Of a DNA stretch of 64,000 nucleotides, positions 45,890 to 54,983 are shown piece after piece. The stretch is taken from assembly GCA_038736355.1 (NCBI GenBank), contig JAVYML010000001.1, positions 396,252 to 460,251 of the forward strand. The letters are read 5' to 3'. Under the pieces are notes generated by a model. That model was not told where the DNA came from, searched no databases, and saw only the letters and a program-made list of their open reading frames with translations. Each line of letters opens with the position of its first letter. Within the stretch, counting starts at the first letter, position 1. The DNA is from Candidatus Hadarchaeales archaeon (GTDB lineage: Archaea > Hadarchaeota > Hadarchaeia > Hadarchaeales > WYZ-LMO6). The position numbers and the translations under genes were made by a program.

Positions 45890-48814
45890 TCAAGGCTCGA
45901 AGAAGTAGACTCCGCCAGTCGAGTCTCCTACCACTACCCTTCCATCGGAAAAGACTCCCATGGAATCGGGAGAGGTGAGAGAAGAAACGGTATATTTCCA
46001 GAGAAGATTTCCCTTCTCGTCAAAGGAGTAGATTTTTCCTTCCATATCCCCCACGACGAGGTATCCGGCAACCCTGGAAACACAGGCTACAGGACCGACG
46101 GTACGAATCCATTCTGGCGTTCCCTTTTCGGTGAGTAGAAGGTAAATCTTCCCCTCGAACCTCCTCTCCGTCACTATCTCGTACATGTCGCCCACCGCCA
46201 AGAAGAATCCCCCTGCAAGGCTCAAATCTTGAACTGAACCCTCCGTCCGGTAACTCCAGAAGGGAACGTTCTCCAACCTAGAGAAGAGATGGACCCAGTT
46301 GCGACCTCCTGCCGCCAAGTAGGTACCATCCCAACTCAGATCTAGGGAGAAAACTGTGTCAAGTCCCTCCAACTCGTAAGTCCAGAGGGGTGAGGGAGAG
46401 TCCGTGGAAAAGAAGAAGATGGTCCGATGGTCTTCGTTCTGGAGAAAGACCGCCACGTACTTACCGTTCCGAGAGAGTCTCAGCAGGGGCCTAGAACTAC
46501 CCATGGGACCCAGCTTCCGCTTCCAGAGGAGAGTACCGTCACGGGAGAAAAGGTAAAGCGTGGCCTCACCCTCTGACATTCCCACGGCCGCCGCCGTTGT
46601 GCCGTTGCTGCTGAGAGCCACAGGACAGGGATAATAACCCACCTCACACCTCCACAATTCACGTCCAGAAGAATCCAGCAAGAAGAGATAGGGATTGAAA
46701 TGGGGCAAACCGGAGGCTAAAACATAGGAGCCTTCCTTGCTGATCGCTGCCGATCCGATCAAATCCTTGACCCACAGGGGCCTATTCTCATCCACGGAGA
46801 AGAAATACAGGGGGTGGGCCCTGCTCCCCTCATCGGCCACGACCACGAAGTGGGAGCCTTCCTCCGCCACCCTCACCTCCTCGATCACGCCAAAAATCCT
46901 GTAAACCCAACGGGGTGGAAGGGAAAATTCCGCCAAGACGGTGGGGGAGGAAATCACTCCCGTAACGGGCCATCTAGCCGTTTCCCTCCAGTCACTGGTC
47001 TCAAAGTAATAGGTATGGGGACCCAAATCTGAATGAGTGGTGGTCCACTCGTATCGATAAAGGGCACCCGTTTTGTAGTTCCCCTCCACCCATCTCATCT
47101 CCAAGGGACGGTTATCGATGAAGCACCTAACGTACTTCGGGGGATCACCTTCCTCATCCCAATAAACCACCTCGTAGACAACGGTGGTATCCAATCCCAC
47201 GCGCGGGGGAGGTCCTGTTCTTTGGGAGAGTCGCGGCGGGGTATTCGGACCGGAGGGGGGTATCCCTTCACCCGAAACTGTGACTAAAGGTGTCCTCCAA
47301 CTGTAAAGGGTGGTAGACCAATCCCCGATACCCAACCAATCGGTTAGAATCCCCAGACAAACCCCTCCGTCCACATCGAACCCTGCTTTCAGCGACCAGT
47401 TCTCCAGGCTACAGGTATCCAGCTCCAGCAAGGGTTTGAAGGAAAGGTAGGGGCCTGCCATGGAATAGAAGTATGCTCCCATTTCAAAGTCCAGATAGGG
47501 TTGGGCATAGGCCAGTCCCTCCATGCAGGGACCAGAACGGGAGAAGGAGGGTATGATTTCCGCCACTGGACCCCATCCTTTTTGCCTCGTCCATTGTACT
47601 CCCAGCTTGAAGGTGGTGGAGGAAGTCATGCTTGCCTTTAAGGAAAAATCTCCTCTCGTTCCCACCTCTAGGCCTCCGCTCACGGTCACGTTCAGACTCA
47701 CTTCCACTGGAACGTTGAAGAGCACACAGAAAATCAGATAATTCCACTCGTACACCTTTTTGTTCCAATCATAGGAGAGCCTCCCTTGAATGTTCCAATC
47801 CAAAGAGAGGGAGAGGGAAGGATCCACTTCCGCGTAAGCTCTGAACAACTGTAGCTTTCCTTCCTCGAAGTCCCATTCCACCACCCAATTCAAGCCCAAA
47901 CCCACGGATCCTGCAACATCGGCTTTTGCCGAAACCTCCTCCGAGAAAAAGCAGAAGGGTAGGGCGAAGTGAAAAGAAAGCCTTGCACCCTCTTTCCAAT
48001 AGAAGTCGCTTTCCTCTTCCTCACCCTCCTCAACTTGGGGAATTCCCTCCGTTCCTGCCAGCACGTATTTGGCGGTGAAGCTCCTGTACTCCTGCAGGGA
48101 AAGGAGGAGTTCGGGAGTGATTTCCGGCGGGTTCTCCGTTACCACCACCTTCTCCGTCAGCTTTAGCTCAGAGCCCTGTAGGTCGAGATGGGCTTCCCTG
48201 TAATTCCCTCCCCCGAAATCCACCCTCCACTTCTTACCGGAAAGCTCCCCAGCGTTGACCAAGATGGCCCGTTCCGGCAACTTTATGGGTAGAACGGTGA
48301 CACGTTCCACCCTTTGGCCCTTTTCAGGCATGGACTTGAGCATGAGCTGCATGAACATCATTTGCCCCAGGATGAAACCCACCCCTTTATCTCCCCTCTT
48401 GGGACCCACTTTCACTTCCCAGAGATTCTCGGAAGGATTGAACTTGGAAGCCCTCACGACCGAGCCCTCCACTGAGATCCTCAACCCATTTTCCTTTCCA
48501 CCTTCCACCCTGGAGAGAAGGGGAGCAGCTTTCGTCCCCGTGAGCATTTCGTATTCTTCCAGCATTCCCGCCACAAGCATTTCCTCGAATTTTTCACCCA
48601 CTTCTTCCTGAAACTCGCGGTAGAAAGTCAGGAGGGAACCTTCCGCCGTTGTGGAAAGCTGCAACGTGGCATCCCCGTTATCGAAGATGCAAATTCCACC
48701 TCCCAAAAGCAAGGAGGCCTTGGATCCGGCCTTAGATCTCCCGAAAATTAGAAATCCTGAAAGGGTTCCCACCAACAAAAGAACGAGGAAAATGCCTACC
48801 TGAATACCACGCAT
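45890..48814 (-). CDS. Large membrane-anchored protein with C-terminal beta-propeller
   Basis: 974 residues. One N-terminal helix (QVGIFLVLLLVGTLSGFLIF) anchors it outside the cell. Residues 40-520 are beta-strand rich with alternating hydrophobics (LSLSLDWNIQGRLSYDW, GGLEVGTRGDFSLKAS) and scattered Cys. Residues 540-640 look like a fibronectin/Ig-type domain (VVYEVVYWDEEGDPPKYVRC). Residues 640-974 have about seven WD40/PQQ-like blades of the form YLLVSSNG...LW (for example GTLLWKRKLG, NLLWKYTVSS). A surface sensor or structural role is possible; no enzyme motif is seen. Confidence 0.72.
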   Translation of the reverse strand: MRGIQVGIFLVLLLVGTLSGFLIFGRSKAGSKASLLLGGGICIFDNGDATLQLSTTAEGSLLTFYREFQEEVGEKFEEMLVAGMLEEYEMLTGTKAAPLLSRVEGGKENGLRISVEGSVVRASKFNPSENLWEVKVGPKRGDKGVGFILGQMMFMQLMLKSMPEKGQRVERVTVLPIKLPERAILVNAGELSGKKWRVDFGGGNYREAHLDLQGSELKLTEKVVVTENPPEITPELLLSLQEYRSFTAKYVLAGTEGIPQVEEGEEEESDFYWKEGARLSFHFALPFCFFSEEVSAKADVAGSVGLGLNWVVEWDFEEGKLQLFRAYAEVDPSLSLSLDWNIQGRLSYDWNKKVYEWNYLIFCVLFNVPVEVSLNVTVSGGLEVGTRGDFSLKASMTSSTTFKLGVQWTRQKGWGPVAEIIPSFSRSGPCMEGLAYAQPYLDFEMGAYFYSMAGPYLSFKPLLELDTCSLENWSLKAGFDVDGGVCLGILTDWLGIGDWSTTLYSWRTPLVTVSGEGIPPSGPNTPPRLSQRTGPPPRVGLDTTVVYEVVYWDEEGDPPKYVRCFIDNRPLEMRWVEGNYKTGALYRYEWTTTHSDLGPHTYYFETSDWRETARWPVTGVISSPTVLAEFSLPPRWVYRIFGVIEEVRVAEEGSHFVVVADEGSRAHPLYFFSVDENRPLWVKDLIGSAAISKEGSYVLASGLPHFNPYLFLLDSSGRELWRCEVGYYPCPVALSSNGTTAAAVGMSEGEATLYLFSRDGTLLWKRKLGPMGSSRPLLRLSRNGKYVAVFLQNEDHRTIFFFSTDSPSPLWTYELEGLDTVFSLDLSWDGTYLAAGGRNWVHLFSRLENVPFWSYRTEGSVQDLSLAGGFFLAVGDMYEIVTERRFEGKIYLLLTEKGTPEWIRTVGPVACVSRVAGYLVVGDMEGKIYSFDEKGNLLWKYTVSSLTSPDSMGVFSDGRVVVGDSTGGVYFFEP

Positions 48815-48831: not shown

Positions 48832-48845
48832 CCGTTTTATAATTT
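48832..48845 (-). promoter_or_regulatory. TATA-like box for the beta-propeller gene
   Basis: AAATTATAAAACGG on the minus strand, about 25 bases before the ATG at 48814. It overlaps the stop codon of the epimerase gene, so this large gene probably has its own transcript. Confidence 0.45.
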
Positions 48846-49776
48846 AGCGGTGCCAGAAGCGTAAGACTTCCTTCAATCCTTCCTCCAGGGTGGTTTTGGC
48901 TTCGAATCCCAGCACTTCCTTTGCCTTCCTCACATCCGCCACACTCCTCTTGATATCACCCCTCCTCGGCGAACCGTGGATGGGCTTCATTCCCTCCTTT
49001 CCCGTCAGCTTGAGCAAAAGGGAACACAGCTCCAGGATGCTGGTCTCCCTTCCCGTTCCTATGTTCAGCACCTGACCAGGCGCCCTTGGGGAGGTAAGGG
49101 CAAGGAGGTTGGCCCGTGCCACATCCCCCACATACACGAAATCCCTCGTCTGCTCCCCGGTTCCATGGATGAGGGGGGGAAGATCCTTTTTCAATCTTTC
49201 CAAAAATCTCACGATCACCCCAGCATACTCTCCCCCTCCTTGCCTGGGGCCATAAACGTTGAAGTACCTGAGACAGACCGTCTCCAGACCCCTCTCCCTG
49301 AAGAACCTCAGACACTCCCATTCCGCCCTTAGCTTGGACTCGGCATAGGGTGAAAGGGGGGAAGGGGGATGGTCTTCAGCCACGGGTAGATGTTTGGGCT
49401 CCCCATAAACCGAGGCGGAGGAGGCATAAATGAACCTCCTCACCCCCTTCCTCGCGCAAGCTTCCAAAAGATGGAGGGTACCCATCACGTTTATTTCCCT
49501 TACCCTTTCCGGTCTCTCGAAGGAAAGGGGAACGCTGACCAGTGCGGCCTCATGGATCACCGCCTCCACACCCTCCATTGCCTTCCCCACCGCCTCCGAA
49601 TCCCTGATGTCCCCCCTTACCAGCTTGAAAGAAGGTTTTTCCAGATGGACTGCCAAATTTTCCCTTTTTCCGGAAGAGAAATCGTCCAGTACCGTCACTT
49701 CGTACCCCTGGGAGAGAAGGAGATCCACCGTGTGGGAACCTATGAAACCAGCCCCTCCCGTCACCAGTATCCTCAT
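48844..49776 (-). CDS. NAD-dependent sugar-nucleotide epimerase (GalE-like)
   Basis: 310-residue extended short-chain dehydrogenase: GGAGFIGSHTVDLLL (NAD), LDDFSSGKRENL, the catalytic triad from SSASVYG and YAESKLRAE (Y-x-x-x-K), and YFNVYGPRQ. Typically UDP-glucose/galactose or UDP-GlcNAc 4-epimerase. Its ATG overlaps the stop of the last pilin-like gene (ATGA), so it is translated with that cassette; the sugar might decorate the pilin-like proteins or surface glycans. Confidence 0.9.
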   Translation of the reverse strand: MRILVTGGAGFIGSHTVDLLLSQGYEVTVLDDFSSGKRENLAVHLEKPSFKLVRGDIRDSEAVGKAMEGVEAVIHEAALVSVPLSFERPERVREINVMGTLHLLEACARKGVRRFIYASSASVYGEPKHLPVAEDHPPSPLSPYAESKLRAEWECLRFFRERGLETVCLRYFNVYGPRQGGGEYAGVIVRFLERLKKDLPPLIHGTGEQTRDFVYVGDVARANLLALTSPRAPGQVLNIGTGRETSILELCSLLLKLTGKEGMKPIHGSPRRGDIKRSVADVRKAKEVLGFEAKTTLEEGLKEVLRFWHR

Positions 49777-50393
49777 TCCACGACCACCCTTCTCCCCGCT
49801 TGGTAATCCGTCAGTTTCAACCTTCCGTTCTCCTCCTCGAAGAGAATTCCCTCCTGGGAGAAAAGGGAATTCAGTTCCTCCACCGACTTTCCCAGAGGGA
49901 TGGAAGCCAGATGTTTGAGGCGGAGGAAACGCTCCCTTGCCTCCACCCTCAGCTCCAGACCGAAGAGCTTACAACCGCCAGAATGCTCAAAGGAGGCTGG
50001 CAACCATCCCCTCACCTCCAAGCTACCATCTGGCCTCCAGAGGAAGAGGAGGTTCTCCACCACCGGCACTTTTACTTCGACGCTCGGATACATCCAACCC
50101 TCCAAAATCCTGGCGTTGAGGAGGGAGAGGACCTTTTTCTCCACTTCCTCTTCCCCTCCCCCCCTTCTTCCCGCCTCATACATCGCCAGGGGAAGGGTAT
50201 CCTCCAACAGGCCCTCCAACTCCCCCTTCACACTCAACGAAACAGCACGGGTGAAGTCGGAGGCGAGAAGGATCCTCGATGTACCCACTTCCTCTTCCCA
50301 GAGACGGTTGAAGGTCCAAAGGGCAGCCCAAGAACAAAGGATCAGGAAAAGTGCGAAAACCGCCACCGTCTCCGCCGCACCCCTATGGTCCAA
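49773..50393 (-). CDS. Pilin-like protein 5 of the cassette
   Basis: 206 residues from a TTG at 50393. The N terminus MDHRG then AAETVAVFALFLILCSW resembles a class III (type IV pilin) signal, cut after RG, with Glu at +3 and a hydrophobic helix. The large C-terminal domain has SFEHSGGCKLFGLELRVEA. It is the largest of five consecutive N-terminally anchored genes, in the way GspK is the largest minor pseudopilin of type II secretion. Overlaps gene 4 by 11 bases. Confidence 0.6.
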   Translation of the reverse strand: MDHRGAAETVAVFALFLILCSWAALWTFNRLWEEEVGTSRILLASDFTRAVSLSVKGELEGLLEDTLPLAMYEAGRRGGGEEEVEKKVLSLLNARILEGWMYPSVEVKVPVVENLLFLWRPDGSLEVRGWLPASFEHSGGCKLFGLELRVEARERFLRLKHLASIPLGKSVEELNSLFSQEGILFEEENGRLKLTDYQAGRRVVVE

Positions 50394-50823
50394 GCAGGCC
50401 CACCTCCACCCTCACCATCACGAGACCCCCCGTGGTGGCCAAGGTGAGGGCCCCCCTTCTGGTGGCCAAGACCCTCTCTCCCCTCCCCACCTCCACCCTT
50501 TTGAACGCATTCTCCGTCCTCATCTCCAGGAAGGCTCCCAAATTCTCGGGACAGAGAAACTCGAGCACTTCGGAGAGGGGAAGCTCGTTTTCGGGAACGG
50601 TGGGATCGTCTAGGAGAAGGATCTCGGCCACCGCCCTCAAGTAACCTACTCCGGGAACCACCTCAGAGGATTCCAGAGTACGGTAGAGTTGCTCCGCCTT
50701 GAGCTCCATGTACCTGTGGGGGGAGAGACCGAAGGAGGAAAGGGAGAGATAAAGGATACTGGAGGCCGTGAGGAGGAGGAAAAACATGGAAGCGATGGCG
50801 AGGAGATCGGCCACCCCCTTCAT
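50383..50823 (-). CDS. Pilin-like protein 4 of the cassette
   Basis: 146 residues from ATG at 50823, which overlaps the stop of gene 3 (ATGA). Begins MKG then VADLLAIASMFFLLLTASSI, a good class III prepilin signal with cleavage after G. The rest is a mixed domain ending GALTLATTGGLVMVRVEV. Not assigned to a family. Confidence 0.6.
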   Translation of the reverse strand: MKGVADLLAIASMFFLLLTASSILYLSLSSFGLSPHRYMELKAEQLYRTLESSEVVPGVGYLRAVAEILLLDDPTVPENELPLSEVLEFLCPENLGAFLEMRTENAFKRVEVGRGERVLATRRGALTLATTGGLVMVRVEVGLLGP

Positions 50824-51224
50824 GCCCACCAGACCTCCAGCCCCAACCTTCCGGGCTGGGGAAAGTTCTCAAGCAAGGAAACGGGGGCGAGGAGGGAACA
50901 CTTCCGTTTACCCTCTGGAGGAAGGGGACCAAAGGGACCCCACTTCCTCCCCCTCAAATCCTCCGCCCAAATCCTAAACTCCACCTCCCTTTCTCCCACC
51001 TTCCTCCTGAACTCCAGGGAGGAAAGGGAGGAGGGATCCACCACATAGGGCTTTCCGGAGGAAAGCTCCTCCGCGCAAAGGCGGATGAGGAGAGAACAGG
51101 AAGAATCGGCCAGGACTTCCATTCCTGCCAGTTCTTTTACCCTCAGGTATGAAGAGCCCAGGAGGAAAGAAAAGGAGAGGAAAAAGAGGAAGGCGAAGAG
51201 CACCCTGAGGAGCTTGGGGTTCAT
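50820..51224 (-). CDS. Pilin-like protein 3 of the cassette
   Basis: 134 residues. N-terminal helix LLRVLFAFLFFLSFSFLLG after MNPK; no clear prepilin cleavage site, so it may be a plain anchored protein. Two Cys pairs candidates (SSCSLLIRLC and KRKC) could form a disulfide outside the cell. Overlaps gene 2 by four bases. Confidence 0.55.
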   Translation of the reverse strand: MNPKLLRVLFAFLFFLSFSFLLGSSYLRVKELAGMEVLADSSCSLLIRLCAEELSSGKPYVVDPSSLSSLEFRRKVGEREVEFRIWAEDLRGRKWGPFGPLPPEGKRKCSLLAPVSLLENFPQPGRLGLEVWWA

Positions 51225-51580
51225 ACTTCCCTCACCACCATTTCCCAGCCCGAAGGTCCCTTCTCCAACCTCAGCTCCAGCCTGAGCCTTCCCCTGAAGG
51301 ATTCTGGAGTCCTGATGGGGTACTCAAGCTCCAGCCTCTTCCCAGCCAGCCTGACCTCCTTTCCCTCGAAGATCAGTTCCTGATCCTCGGGGAGATCCAG
51401 GACCACCGTCTGGGGATTTCCCGTGGTTCCAAGGACCCCCAGGGCCTCTCGAAGGGAAAGGAGGGCCTTTTCCGCTTTGGCCTCAGAGGAAAGGGAAGTG
51501 AGGAGCTCAATCCCCAAGAAAAGAACCAGCAATACGAAGGAGGAGAGGAGGACCAGCGCAACCAGCTTCAGAACTTCCAT
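51221..51580 (-). CDS. Pilin-like protein 2 of the cassette
   Basis: 119 residues. N-terminal helix LKLVALVLLSSFVLLVLFLG, then a small beta-rich domain (VVLDLPEDQELIFEGKEVRL, GRLRLELRLEKGPSGWEMVV), the size of a minor pilin. One base separates it from gene 1. No family match. Confidence 0.58.
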   Translation of the reverse strand: MEVLKLVALVLLSSFVLLVLFLGIELLTSLSSEAKAEKALLSLREALGVLGTTGNPQTVVLDLPEDQELIFEGKEVRLAGKRLELEYPIRTPESFRGRLRLELRLEKGPSGWEMVVREV

Positions 51581-51581
51581 G

Positions 51582-52025
51582 TCATTCCAGCTTCAGCTCG
51601 AGGGGGCAGGAACGCTCGGTTCCATCCTCTCCCTTTGCCTTCACGGTTAGGGAAATGGTGGTGGGTGAGGCGGAAGGGGTCACCCTGATCACCAGAGTGG
51701 AGTAAAAATCGGGTGTTCCAGAGGATGGGTTGAACTGGAGGGAAACTCCCCCGAGGGAGGGGGAAGCGGAGAGCTGGACCAAGCGGTCGTAACCCGCTAT
51801 CCTAGTGATGGACACCCTAACTGTCACCTGGTTCTCCCCGTTCTCGGGAATCCCGATCCTAAGGGAAGAGGGTTCGACGGAGAGATGGAAGGCGGTGGAA
51901 GAGGTCACGCCCTTCCCAAGCTGGGTGTAGAGGGCCACACCTATGGTGAGGGCCAGGCCGAAGAAGACCACTCCGGCCAAGAGCTTCATCACGAGGGGCT
52001 CTACCCCTTTCTGCTCTAGACCCAT
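51582..52025 (-). CDS. Pilin-like protein 1 of the cassette (class III signal)
   Basis: 147 residues. MGLEQKG then VEPLVMKLLAGVVFFGLALT is a typical archaeal type IV pilin N terminus: basic residue, Gly cleavage point, a Pro at +3 and a hydrophobic helix. The C-terminal domain is an Ig-like beta sandwich (FHLSVEPSSLRIGIPENGEN, VTVRVSITR, STLVIRVTPSASPTTISLTV). First gene of the operon, likely the major subunit. No prepilin peptidase, assembly ATPase or TadC-like platform gene occurs in the window. Confidence 0.72.
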   Translation of the reverse strand: MGLEQKGVEPLVMKLLAGVVFFGLALTIGVALYTQLGKGVTSSTAFHLSVEPSSLRIGIPENGENQVTVRVSITRIAGYDRLVQLSASPSLGGVSLQFNPSSGTPDFYSTLVIRVTPSASPTTISLTVKAKGEDGTERSCPLELKLE

Positions 52026-52054
52026 TTTCTCAGACTTTTTCTCTTACTCCCCAA

Positions 52055-52066
52055 GGGTTTAAAAAC
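52055..52066 (-). promoter_or_regulatory. TATA-like box for the pilin-like operon
   Basis: GTTTTTAAACCC on the minus strand, centred about 35 bases before the ATG at 52025. Confidence 0.45.
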
Positions 52067-52150: not shown

Positions 52151-52264
52151 ATGAGAAAACTCAGATGTCCCATGTGTGGTTCCGAGAAAGTCAAACCGGT
52201 GAAAAGAGGCTTTGGGGATGTTAAGTGCTTGAGCTGTGGATACCGCTGGGTCATCACACTTTAG
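52151..52264 (+). CDS. Very small zinc-ribbon protein
   Basis: 37 residues from ATG at 52151: two CxxC knuckles, CPMC and CLSC, 18 residues apart, with basic residues between, as in zinc ribbons of transcription or RNA-binding proteins and transposases. An earlier in-frame ATG at 52067 would give 65 residues with a basic tail, but the TATA-like box within that extension argues against it. The stop shares four bases with the stop of the convergent nuclease gene (TTAG). Confidence 0.6.
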   Translation: MRKLRCPMCGSEKVKPVKRGFGDVKCLSCGYRWVITL

Positions 52265-53211
52265 AGCTCTAGTTTTACTCCTTTCAGCAATTCCTCAAAG
52301 GTATGGGGCGAAGAAAGATCGATGGCGAAAGAATAAGGAATCAGATGAATTCTTTCTGGCGGGCTCACATGCTTTGGTACCCTTTCGGCCAGTAGAACAC
52401 CTGCCTTACATTCTTCCCCTAATTCTTCCACATATCTCTCGAGCTGCTCGATATCGCTTCTTTCCGCAGAGCCAAGCTTGACTTCAATCGCAATCATCAC
52501 CTTCTTTCCCTTTGGATATGATTCTTTAATGAAGATATCCACATATCCCTCAGAAAGTGCCTTTTCTCCCAGCACTTCCAGCTCCCCCACCCCCTCAACA
52601 CCAAGAAGATTGAGTAACTTCTTCAAAACTTCTCGCCTGAGGAGGTGGTGGCGGAGAACGGACTGGACTATGACCTCACGTAGGGGATAGGCCCCTTCCA
52701 CCTTTTTTCTACTCCTGACGAACCTAGGCTCAAACAGGTCCGGTGAGATCCCCTCTCTCCTCCTCACCTCGTCTCTCCAAACTTCTCCCATTCCTGAAAC
52801 TTGTTGCAAAGTAGTTTGGTCCGCTTGGAAATGTGTTTTCCAGTAACCACCCCTCTGAAGAAGGTTTTCCGCGATGTAGGAGAACTCATGTCTGATCAAG
52901 GGTTCCTCCAGTCTCCTCAACGGCTCCAGTTCTAATCGGAAGGGAAAATGACAAACTTTACCTGAGGTTTGAAAGAAGATGGGTTTCCAGGGCGGGGGAA
53001 GAACTTGGGGATTCTTTACTGCTTCCTTTCTGATCACTCGGTAAAGGTTGTAGGCTTTTGCCCCATAGAGGAAAGTCAGAAAATCTCCTGGTTTTATGTC
53101 ACAATATGCCCAAACTCCATTGATGGTGTCCGGGAAACCAGCCATGGCCCATTCCAGGCATAATTCCAGATTTTCTTTGTTCGAAACTGCAACGAAAAAA
53201 TACTCTTCCAT
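52261..53211 (-). CDS. EVE-like domain fused to PD-(D/E)XK nuclease
   Basis: 316 residues. Residues 3-65 (FFVAVSNKENLELCLEWAM, WAYCDIKPGDFLTFLYG, YNLYRVIRKE) resemble EVE/YTH-type PUA-like domains, which flip out and read modified bases. Residues 175-316 form a NucS/DUF91-like nuclease core: D225 in EGYVDIFI, E243 and K245 in IEVK, and Q256 with Y260 in QLERY, ending in PYSFAID. Reader plus nuclease suggests a type IV, modification-dependent restriction enzyme. Single gene, start ATG at 53211. Alternatives are a repair nuclease or a Holliday-junction-type enzyme. Confidence 0.68.
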   Translation of the reverse strand: MEEYFFVAVSNKENLELCLEWAMAGFPDTINGVWAYCDIKPGDFLTFLYGAKAYNLYRVIRKEAVKNPQVLPPPWKPIFFQTSGKVCHFPFRLELEPLRRLEEPLIRHEFSYIAENLLQRGGYWKTHFQADQTTLQQVSGMGEVWRDEVRRREGISPDLFEPRFVRSRKKVEGAYPLREVIVQSVLRHHLLRREVLKKLLNLLGVEGVGELEVLGEKALSEGYVDIFIKESYPKGKKVMIAIEVKLGSAERSDIEQLERYVEELGEECKAGVLLAERVPKHVSPPERIHLIPYSFAIDLSSPHTFEELLKGVKLEL

Positions 53212-53369: not shown

Positions 53370-53526
53370 ATGCTAGAGGAACTAACACCGTCTTTTCGAG
53401 GGGGCCAAGGTCCTCTGCCATAGGGAGGACGCCCCTGCCGTTAGGTCGGTGAAGAGGTTGGAAGCCCTCTATGGCTGCCCCAACGAGGAAATAGGAAATG
53501 GCATGATGGAATTCCTCATCGGTATG
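53370..53526 (+). pseudogene. Truncated partial copy of the downstream metallo-beta-lactamase gene
   Basis: Within the 478-base gap between the nuclease and the next gene. Positions 53370-53386 resemble the first codons of the MBL gene with several changes (ATGCTAGAGGAACTAAC against ATGCTGGAGGAGCTAGC). Then, after a deletion of about 190 bases, 53387-53526 are identical over all 140 bases to 54301-54440. The frame is broken soon after (TAG after 17 codons). On the opposite strand a frame beginning about 53598 (KKREFTPAEVYAFEDKLADF) looks like an unrelated gene fragment cut by this copy. The remaining bases of the gap show nothing else. Confidence 0.85.
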
Positions 53527-54089: not shown

Positions 54090-54983
54090 ATGCTGGAGGA
54101 GCTAGCGCCCGGGATTTACTTCGTGGAGGGGGAGAACCGGGGAAGATATCCCTTCTCCAATTCCCTCCTCCTGAAGGGGAGGAACCTCACGGCTCTGATA
54201 GACACCGGAATAGGGCCGGAGAAGGCGAGGGAGCTGGCCAAGGAAGAGAAGGTTGATCTTCTACTGGTAAGCCATGGACACGAGGACCACTTCTGCCAGA
54301 ACCGTCTTTTCGAGGGGGCCAAGGTCCTCTGCCATAGGGAGGACGCCCCTGCCGTTAGGTCGGTGAAGAGGTTGGAAGCCCTCTATGGCTGCCCCAACGA
54401 GGAAATAGGAAATGGCATGATGGAATTCCTCATCGGTATGTTCGACCTCAGGGACTCAAGGGTGGACGTGGAGCTGGAAGGTGGGGAGGTGTTGGATCTG
54501 GGGGGACTGGAAGTGGAAGTCCTGCACACACCCGGTCATTCGTCGGGTCACTGTTGCTTCTGGATCCCTTCGGAGAGGCTGCTCTTCCTGGCCGACATAG
54601 ACCTAACTTCCTTCGGTCCGTGGTACGGGTGTGTGGACTCAGACATCGATCAGTTCCTTTCCTCCCTGAAGAGGGTGAAGGAATTCCCAACCGAGGTGGC
54701 GGTGACCAGCCACAAAGGAGTGGTGAGGGGGAGGGAAGAGATAAGGGAGAAGCTGGAGGAGTACGGGAAGAAGATCGAGGAGAGAGAGAAAAGACTGCTC
54801 GCTTTCCTGGAGGAGGAGAGAACCCTCAAGGAAATCGTGGATGCGGCCCTCATCTATGGGAGGTTTCCAGAGCCACAGGTCTTCTACAGGCTCTTCGAGC
54901 GGATGATGGTGGAAAAACACCTCAGGAGGATGGAGGAGAGAGGAGAAGTGGTTAGGACGGAAAGGGGCTTCAGGAGGGCCTAG
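54090..54983 (+). CDS. Metallo-beta-lactamase fold hydrolase with winged-helix tail
   Basis: 297 residues. Metal ligands: HGHEDH (H62, H64, D66, H67), His in HTPGHSSGHC, Asp in FLADIDL and His in VTSHKG. After the MBL fold, residues 205-297 form helices and a winged-helix-like end (RRMEERGEVVRTERGF), as in the MBL subfamily related to LACTB2. Possible hydrolase of thioesters, lactones or RNA; unknown. AAGGAGAGG precedes the ATG. Residues 71-117 are encoded by the segment duplicated upstream. Confidence 0.87.
   Translation: MLEELAPGIYFVEGENRGRYPFSNSLLLKGRNLTALIDTGIGPEKARELAKEEKVDLLLVSHGHEDHFCQNRLFEGAKVLCHREDAPAVRSVKRLEALYGCPNEEIGNGMMEFLIGMFDLRDSRVDVELEGGEVLDLGGLEVEVLHTPGHSSGHCCFWIPSERLLFLADIDLTSFGPWYGCVDSDIDQFLSSLKRVKEFPTEVAVTSHKGVVRGREEIREKLEEYGKKIEEREKRLLAFLEEERTLKEIVDAALIYGRFPEPQVFYRLFERMMVEKHLRRMEERGEVVRTERGFRRA

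What the first reader, a model, noticed from the sequence alone, without database searches (positions are those of the whole stretch)
48844..52025. Five-gene pilin-like cassette with its own epimerase and no assembly machine
Five small proteins in a row each have an N-terminal hydrophobic helix, at least three with class III prepilin-like signals (QKG/VEPL, MKG/VADL, HRG/AAET). The genes overlap or nearly touch, and the last is coupled to a sugar-nucleotide epimerase. Size order, with a large final member, recalls the GspH-I-J-K pseudopilin tip complex. No ATPase or platform gene is in the window, so the set may use a shared machine or form a new surface filament or tip complex that is glycosylated.
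Basis: partly seen in the sequence, partly recalled or inferred. Interest (0 to 1): 0.62.

Follow-up and report, generated by a model that had tools for sequence, protein, structure and literature searches.

The report
Five-gene pilin cassette, machine encoded elsewhere
This is a conserved set of five pilus-subunit genes in an uncultured deep-branching archaeon (Hadarchaeota); its assembly motor and membrane platform do exist but lie in another part of the genome, and two of the five subunits (plus a sixth, large one elsewhere) appear to be made already 'trimmed', without the leader that pilins normally need cut off.

Summary
Five short overlapping genes (52025 to 49773, minus strand) all have an N-terminal hydrophobic helix. 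P1, P4 and P5 carry class III prepilin-like sites (KG|VEP, KG|VAD, RG|AAE). P2 and P3 cannot: no start codon precedes their helix.

The genome is a Hadarchaeota genome. P1-P5 recur as a block across the order. 'No assembly machine' is true only of the window. In six genomes of four genera (two families) a diverged secretion ATPase (ATPA) and a TadC-like protein (TADCA) lie immediately upstream of P1. The window genome keeps both on contig C2, beside a sixth pilin-like gene (CL8). It also has one A24 prepilin peptidase. So this is a lineage-specific archaeal type IV pilus system whose operon was split.

The epimerase is linked only in the window's genus, so 'its own epimerase' and glycosylation are weak. 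A GspH-I-J-K tip complex is not supported.

The unusual part is leader loss. P2 homologues in another archaeal family and CL8 homologues in other Hadarchaeota genera have ordinary KG| leaders; Hadarchaeota P2 and the window genus's CL8 start near the would-be mature N-terminus. Function (adhesion pilus most likely) is inferred.

The parts
51582..52025 (-). P1, probable major pilin: class III-like leader MGLEQKG|VEPLVMKLLAG, hydrophobic helix, Ig-like beta head
   Evidence: weak profile hit to a chain named flagellin, 8fk7_A, E 0.12 over helix and start of head; weak Ig-like Pfam hits
51221..51580 (-). P2, leaderless minor-pilin-like protein (N-terminal helix plus beta domain with TG..QTV..IP.GY motif)
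   Evidence: homologues in family f16 have a KG|IES class III leader
50820..51224 (-). P3, leaderless pilin-like protein; AlphaFold2 model: 51-residue N-terminal helix plus antiparallel beta strands (pLDDT 92)
50383..50829 (-). P4, minor-pilin-like protein with class III-like site MKG|VADLLAIASMF
49773..50393 (-). P5, largest member of the cassette, class III-like site HRG|AAETVAVFALF; model: long helix 4-76, second helix, beta strands (pLDDT 86); found convincingly only in Hadarchaeota among 297 genomes searched
48844..49776 (-). NAD-dependent sugar-nucleotide epimerase family protein, start codon overlaps P5 stop (ATGA); linkage is genus-specific
45890..48814 (-). 974-aa predicted exported protein with C-terminal PQQ-type beta-propeller, next to the epimerase in both genomes where it was seen; association with the pili unproven
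52050..52066 (-). TATA-like stretch (GTTTTTAAACCC) upstream of P1, possible promoter of the operon
   Evidence: read from sequence; not tested

Best explanation
P1-P5 are the pilin set of an archaeal type IV pilus system of Hadarchaeota. ATPA (diverged TadA/FlaI-like ATPase) and TADCA (diverged TadC platform) extract the subunits from the membrane and stack their N-terminal helices into a filament. P1 is the likely major pilin (shown: conserved KG|VEP leader, helix, exchangeable head that is Ig-like here and missing in two genera; inferred: that it is the bulk subunit). P4 and P5 are processed minor pilins. P2, P3 and CL8 are minor pilin-like subunits; in the window's genus they are translated without a leader and so would enter assembly without peptidase cleavage. 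The single A24 peptidase matures P1, P4 and P5. In the window genus a rearrangement separated the pilin operon (contig C1, with an epimerase and a beta-propeller protein appended) from ATPA-TADCA-CL8 (contig C2). The most likely use is a surface adhesion or aggregation pilus, with P5 and/or CL8 as the large, variable distal subunits. Shown: gene content, conservation, synteny, motifs, P2 homology. Inferred: filament formation, subunit roles, function.
For: ATPA and TADCA lie immediately upstream of P1 in G004, G008, G013 and G014 (L036, L040, L045, L046) and in G011 and G023 (L179, L178): six genomes of four genera in two families. The own-genome orthologue G000:C2:355932-358010 is 47% identical to the G008 ATPase, passes the Pfam T2SSE cut-off (29.0 vs 24.9 bits) and matches solved GspE2/FlaI/CpaF ATPases (E 1.9e-13 to 4.8e-10). 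TADCA overlaps its 3' end and is related to TadC-like proteins of other archaea (phmmer 9e-18 to 8e-29; 5e-42 and 3e-44). CL8 (321 aa, pilin-like) is divergently adjacent to ATPA in G000 and G001 and adjacent to P5 in genera g10 and g12, linking the two loci. Peptidase_A24 is present. G003 (94% complete, same family) lacks P1, P5, ATPA and CL8 together. The P2 profile matches proteins with class III leaders next to TadC-like genes in family f16 (E 1e-6 to 5e-5 per genome; hhalign probability 93%; neighbourhoods). In G009 a carbohydrate-binding module (CBM96, E 7e-63) sits inside the CL8-like gene.
Against: No filament has been seen. P3, P4 and P5 have no detected homologue outside the order, and fold searches of P3 and P5 returned no pilin. 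Genome-wide co-occurrence of cassette and ATPA is only suggestive because the genomes are incomplete (19 both, 3 cassette only, 2 ATPA only, 3 neither; Fisher p 0.056). The genome has four other T4P-type ATPase/TadC loci, so use of ATPA is inferred from synteny in relatives.
Confidence: 0.82

Rival explanations
1. P1, P4 and P5 are filament subunits, but the leaderless P2, P3 and CL8 are uncleaved, membrane-anchored base or stator proteins (working like ArlF/ArlG of the archaellum or GspL/GspM-PilN/PilO), not pilins.
For: P2 and P3 have no leader and no upstream start codon and begin with a short, often basic tail before the helix, as uncleaved anchors do. The best structural neighbours of the P3 model are membrane-anchored sensor domains (best Z 7.4, 78 aligned, rmsd 2.8).
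Against: P2 homologues elsewhere have ordinary KG| class III leaders, and CL8 has a KG| leader in genera g7 and g11, so for these two the leaderless state looks derived. The P3 model has a pilin-like plan (51-residue helix plus antiparallel strands). Z under 8 may mean only a common arrangement.
Confidence: 0.3
2. The set is a short endopilus of a secretion system (working like a type II secretion pseudopilus) that exports a substrate such as the neighbouring 974-aa beta-propeller protein, rather than a surface fibre.
For: Minor-pilin-rich operon; an exported large protein is encoded directly downstream in the window's genus.
Against: That neighbour is not found next to the cassette in the other genera. 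No GspH/I/J/K similarity was found. Archaea of this kind are not known to have the outer membrane that a T2SS crosses (general knowledge, not tested).
Confidence: 0.12
3. One reading: a glycosylated tip complex or new filament that borrows a generic shared machine.
For: The epimerase start overlaps the P5 stop in the window, and an orthologue is present in G001. Several other ATPase/TadC loci exist in the genome.
Against: A dedicated machine is syntenic in relatives and present in this genome. Epimerase linkage is confined to one genus. No tip-complex homology found.
Confidence: 0.08

Closest known systems
Euryarchaeal clade 2 type IV pili, PilB4-type loci (Makarova, Koonin and Albers 2016, PMC4858521)
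   Same: One ATPase, a TadC-like platform and their own set of several pilins; the paper reports ATPase/TadC modules that evolve independently of, and act in trans on, pilin sets.
   Different: ATPA forms its own long-branched clade with a Cys-rich N-terminus; P3-P5 have no detected relatives outside the order; three subunits leaderless. No reference PilB4 sequence was available, so clade membership is untested.
ATPase/TadC/pilin loci of archaeal family f16 (G061, G101, G226; unnamed here)
   Same: Related ATPase and TadC-like protein (E 3e-46 and 3e-44 in G061), a P2 homologue, and in G101 and G226 a 60-62-aa P1-like leader plus helix (P1 profile E about 1e-3), in one locus.
   Different: P2 there keeps a KG|IES leader (G061, G101); the gene between ATPase and TadC and the other minor pilins show no detected homology to P3/P4; no P5.
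GspH-GspI-GspJ-GspK pseudopilin tip complex
   Same: Consecutive small N-helix proteins ending in a larger member.
   Different: No sequence similarity found; the P5 model gave no GspK match; the members do not map one to one.
Archaellum (ArlF/ArlG)
   Same: FlaI-type ATPase is a distant relative of ATPA; possible unprocessed accessory subunits.
   Different: ATPA groups with the Cys-N-terminal pilus ATPases; no archaellum gene was recognised beside the cassette or ATPA.

Membership tests
Archaeal type IV pilus system | VirB11/TadA-type assembly ATPase | tested here: met
   ATPA over Pfam T2SSE cut-off (29.0 vs 24.9 bits); matches GspE2, FlaI, CpaF structures; adjacent to TADCA-P1 in six relatives
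Archaeal type IV pilus system | TadC-like membrane platform | tested here: met
   TADCA is related to TadC-like proteins next to related ATPases; such second-machine proteins hit T2SSF in several genomes, e.g. G007:C34 2.0e-9, G004:C20 1.7e-8 (G004's is L088 4734-6494, TADCA phmmer 1e-23). Pfam T2SSF does not recognise TADCA directly
Archaeal type IV pilus system | Prepilin peptidase (A24) in the genome | tested here: met
   One match, E 3.9e-13, C1:34174; 20 of 27 order genomes
Archaeal type IV pilus system | Class III prepilin signals on the subunits | tested here: inconclusive
   P1, P4 and P5 by motif and conservation; absent from P2, P3 and the window genus's CL8. No trained predictor was available
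Archaeal type IV pilus system | N-terminal helix packed on a beta-rich head | tested here: inconclusive
   P3 and P5 models show a long helix plus antiparallel strands, but no solved pilin among the matches
Archaeal type IV pilus system | Forms an extracellular filament | not testable with these tools
   needs microscopy and proteomics
GspH-I-J-K pseudopilin complex | Sequence or fold homology of the members to GspH/I/J/K | tested here: inconclusive
   No PDB profile hit of P1, P2, P4 or P5 to a pseudopilin; P5 and P3 fold searches without pseudopilin rows
Bindosome assembly system (BasB) | NCBIfam NF053670 match above cut-off | tested here: not met
   P4 scores 13.2 bits against a cut-off of 230
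Euryarchaeal clade 2 (PilB3/PilB4-type) | ATPase falls in clade 2 | not tested
   No reference sequences of known clade could be fetched; the tree lacks them
GalE (UDP-glucose 4-epimerase) | NCBIfam galE above cut-off | tested here: not met
   211.5 bits against 262.3; Pfam Epimerase 238.9 bits, so epimerase/dehydratase family, exact substrate unknown

The most novel reading that the evidence does not exclude
Hadarchaeota assemble a type IV filament in which some pilins (P2, P3, and CL8 in several genera) are translated directly at the mature N-terminus, bypassing the prepilin peptidase that is otherwise taken as obligatory for entry into a type IV filament.
Probability: 0.35. Interest if true: 0.62.

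Novelty: new variant of a known kind. Interest (0 to 1): 0.42.

Why it matters
It shows a complete, lineage-specific type IV pilus system in an uncultured archaeal phylum; two searches of the open-access paper library turned up no paper that looked to be about pili in Hadarchaeota (hits not read in full). Its parts escape Pfam almost entirely: the pilins have no significant matches, TADCA has none, and ATPA scores just above or below the cut-off. It resolves 'cassette without a machine' into operon splitting. The leaderless minor pilins, with leader-bearing relatives in sister lineages, give a direct test of whether peptidase cleavage is needed for a subunit to enter a type IV filament.

Tried and rejected
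Pfam and NCBIfam on all five proteins: nothing significant. BasB hit to P4 (13 bits, hydrophobic helix only): rejected. GspK analogy for P5: the P5 fold search gave no solved structure with E below 0.001, and the best Z was 6.4 to a pantoate-beta-alanine ligase domain (3q10_A, 84 aligned, rmsd 3.3); not used. P3 fold search: best Z 7.4 to sensor domains (9nj8_B, 78 aligned, rmsd 2.8) and many ribosomal protein domains around 6; treated as a common arrangement; pilins did not appear among the rows, which proves nothing. Counting the 974-aa protein as a class III substrate (MRG|IQVG) was rejected because the G001 orthologue lacks the site. Minor-pilin-like proteins next to a related ATPase in G057 (L100) as homologues of P3, P4, P5: not significant; same for f16 proteins against P3 and P4. 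The Cys-N-terminal paralogue ATPB (G000:C3:69363) was considered as the machine, but no pilin-like genes were seen beside it in the three Hadarchaeota loci mapped and it is not the one syntenic with P1.
Full report
WHAT IS THERE. Transcription runs on the minus strand: P1 (147 aa), P2 (119), P3 (134), P4 (148), P5 (206), then a sugar-nucleotide epimerase whose ATG overlaps the P5 stop, then a 974-aa predicted exported beta-propeller protein. Pfam and NCBIfam recognise none of P1-P5. A hydrophobic N-terminal segment is found in all five; in 147 gene-like ORFs sampled from the same genome it is found in 29, so five in a row is unlikely by chance, and conservation settles the point.

WHOSE GENOME. 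The named genomes found to encode a P5 relative are nearly all Hadesarchaea / Hadarchaeota assemblies, including Candidatus Hadarchaeum yellowstonense; the closest one with a lineage name is Hadesarchaea archaeon WYZ-LMO6. The window is the end of contig C1 of a 1.27 Mb genome held here as G000.

CONSERVATION. Searches in up to 297 genomes and neighbourhood maps show P1-P2-P3-P4-P5 as a block in the same order across the taxonomic order. P5 occurs in 20 of 27 genomes of the order and convincingly in none of the other 270. In genus g12 P5 lies some 8-10 kb from P1-P4 (L052, L053). In genera g8 and g13 P1 is only about 60-73 aa (leader plus helix, no Ig head), while P5 is 430-508 aa. The epimerase and the beta-propeller protein follow P5 only in G000 and G001; G002 is cut by a contig end. 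They are a genus-level addition, not part of the core system.

THE MACHINE. In G004, G008, G013 and G014, and in G011 and G023 (L179, L178), the gene directly upstream of P1 is a roughly 660-aa membrane protein (TADCA), and upstream of that a roughly 745-aa ATPase (ATPA; cut by contig ends in some). That is six genomes of four genera in two families. ATPA is so diverged that Pfam T2SSE scores it just under the cut-off in G008 (24.3 bits), but the own-genome orthologue passes (29.0 bits against 24.9) and matches solved GspE2, FlaI and CpaF ATPases. TADCA is not recognised by T2SSF, but it is related to TadC-like proteins beside related ATPases in other archaea. In the window genome ATPA is at C2:355932-358010, TADCA overlaps its end, and a 321-aa pilin-like gene (CL8) starts divergently next to ATPA. 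CL8 sits beside P5 in genera g10 and g12, so it ties the two loci together. One A24 prepilin peptidase is present. The cassette therefore has a likely dedicated machine, separated from it by rearrangement. Genome-level co-occurrence agrees but is weak statistically (19 both, 3 cassette only, 2 ATPA only, 3 neither; Fisher p 0.056); G003, 94% complete and of the same family, lacks all of it. A tree of 34 ATPases puts ATPA in one fully supported, long-branched clade within the Cys-N-terminal group, apart from the paralogue ATPB.

LEADERS. P1 has an invariant G-V-E-P after a charged or polar leader; P4 has a conserved G|V/I/M-A/S-D; P5 mostly R/N-G|A-A. P2 and P3 have none, and in the window no ATG, GTG or TTG lies upstream in frame before a stop. 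The P2 profile finds homologues in family f16 and one other; in G061 and G101 the homologue has an ordinary KG|IES-PFYLILSS leader and sits by a related TadC-like gene. In the alignment the Hadarchaeota start Met falls about three or four residues after that cleavage site. CL8 has a KG|AETF or KG|AHNL leader in genera g7 and g11 but starts M-DLPFYFLFG in the window's genus. So P2 and CL8 look like pilins that lost the leader and begin near the mature N-terminus. For P3 this is an analogy. An uncleaved-anchor role is the main rival.

STRUCTURE. The P3 model (pLDDT 92) is a 51-residue N-terminal helix followed by five strands. The P5 model (pLDDT 86) is a long helix 4-76, a second helix and strands. 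Both fit a pilin plan, but no solved pilin or pseudopilin was among the matches, so this test is inconclusive. P1 has an Ig-like head by weak hits and a weak profile hit to a chain named flagellin (E 0.12).

FUNCTION. Inferred: a surface filament for adhesion or aggregation, P1 as the bulk, P2-P5 and CL8 as minor subunits. The only hint at a ligand is a CBM96 carbohydrate-binding module inside the CL8-like gene of G009. That gene is broken into two frames in the assembly, so the fusion needs checking.

KNOWN KIND. Makarova et al. 2016 (PMC4858521) describe archaeal T4P in which ATPase/TadC modules and pilin sets recombine and can act in trans, and in which PilB4-type loci bring their own pilins. 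The present system fits that description and is a new variant of it. I could not place ATPA in their clades because no reference sequences were available. Two searches of the paper library turned up no paper that looked to be about pili in Hadarchaeota; the library covers open-access papers only and the hits were not read in full.

Noticed in passing
window 53387-53526 and 54301-54440: An exact 140-bp direct repeat, copies 914 bp apart: a piece of the metallo-beta-lactamase-like gene (54090-54983) is duplicated upstream, leaving a gene fragment at about 53449. Recent duplication or assembly artefact.
   Followed up: partly
L083:6843-12914 (G000:C1 about 26.8-32.9 kb): Another T4P ATPase, with PilB3-like C-terminus, is a 2023-aa ORF interrupted by two intein-splicing regions with LAGLIDADG domains, next to two single-domain TadC genes and the genome's only A24 peptidase.
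   Followed up: partly
L085:7334-9466 (G000:C3): A paralogous Cys-N-terminal ATPase/TadC pair (ATPB), widespread in the order and with relatives in many small-genome archaea, has no pilin-like genes beside it in the Hadarchaeota loci mapped; its filament is unknown.
   Followed up: no
window 52261-53211: A 316-aa protein with a NucS_C-like nuclease C-terminal domain (23.0 bits, just under the cut-off) and a separate N-terminal domain lies upstream of the cassette, same strand.
   Followed up: no
L176:3523-5995 (G009:C19) and G018:C4:32170-34662: CL8 in two genera is enlarged to open frames of 696 and 861 aa; in G009 the added part includes a CBM96 carbohydrate-binding module and the frame is broken.
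   Followed up: partly
window 45890-48814: 974-aa predicted exported protein with PQQ-type beta-propeller repeats, with a clear orthologue in G001; unknown role.
   Followed up: no
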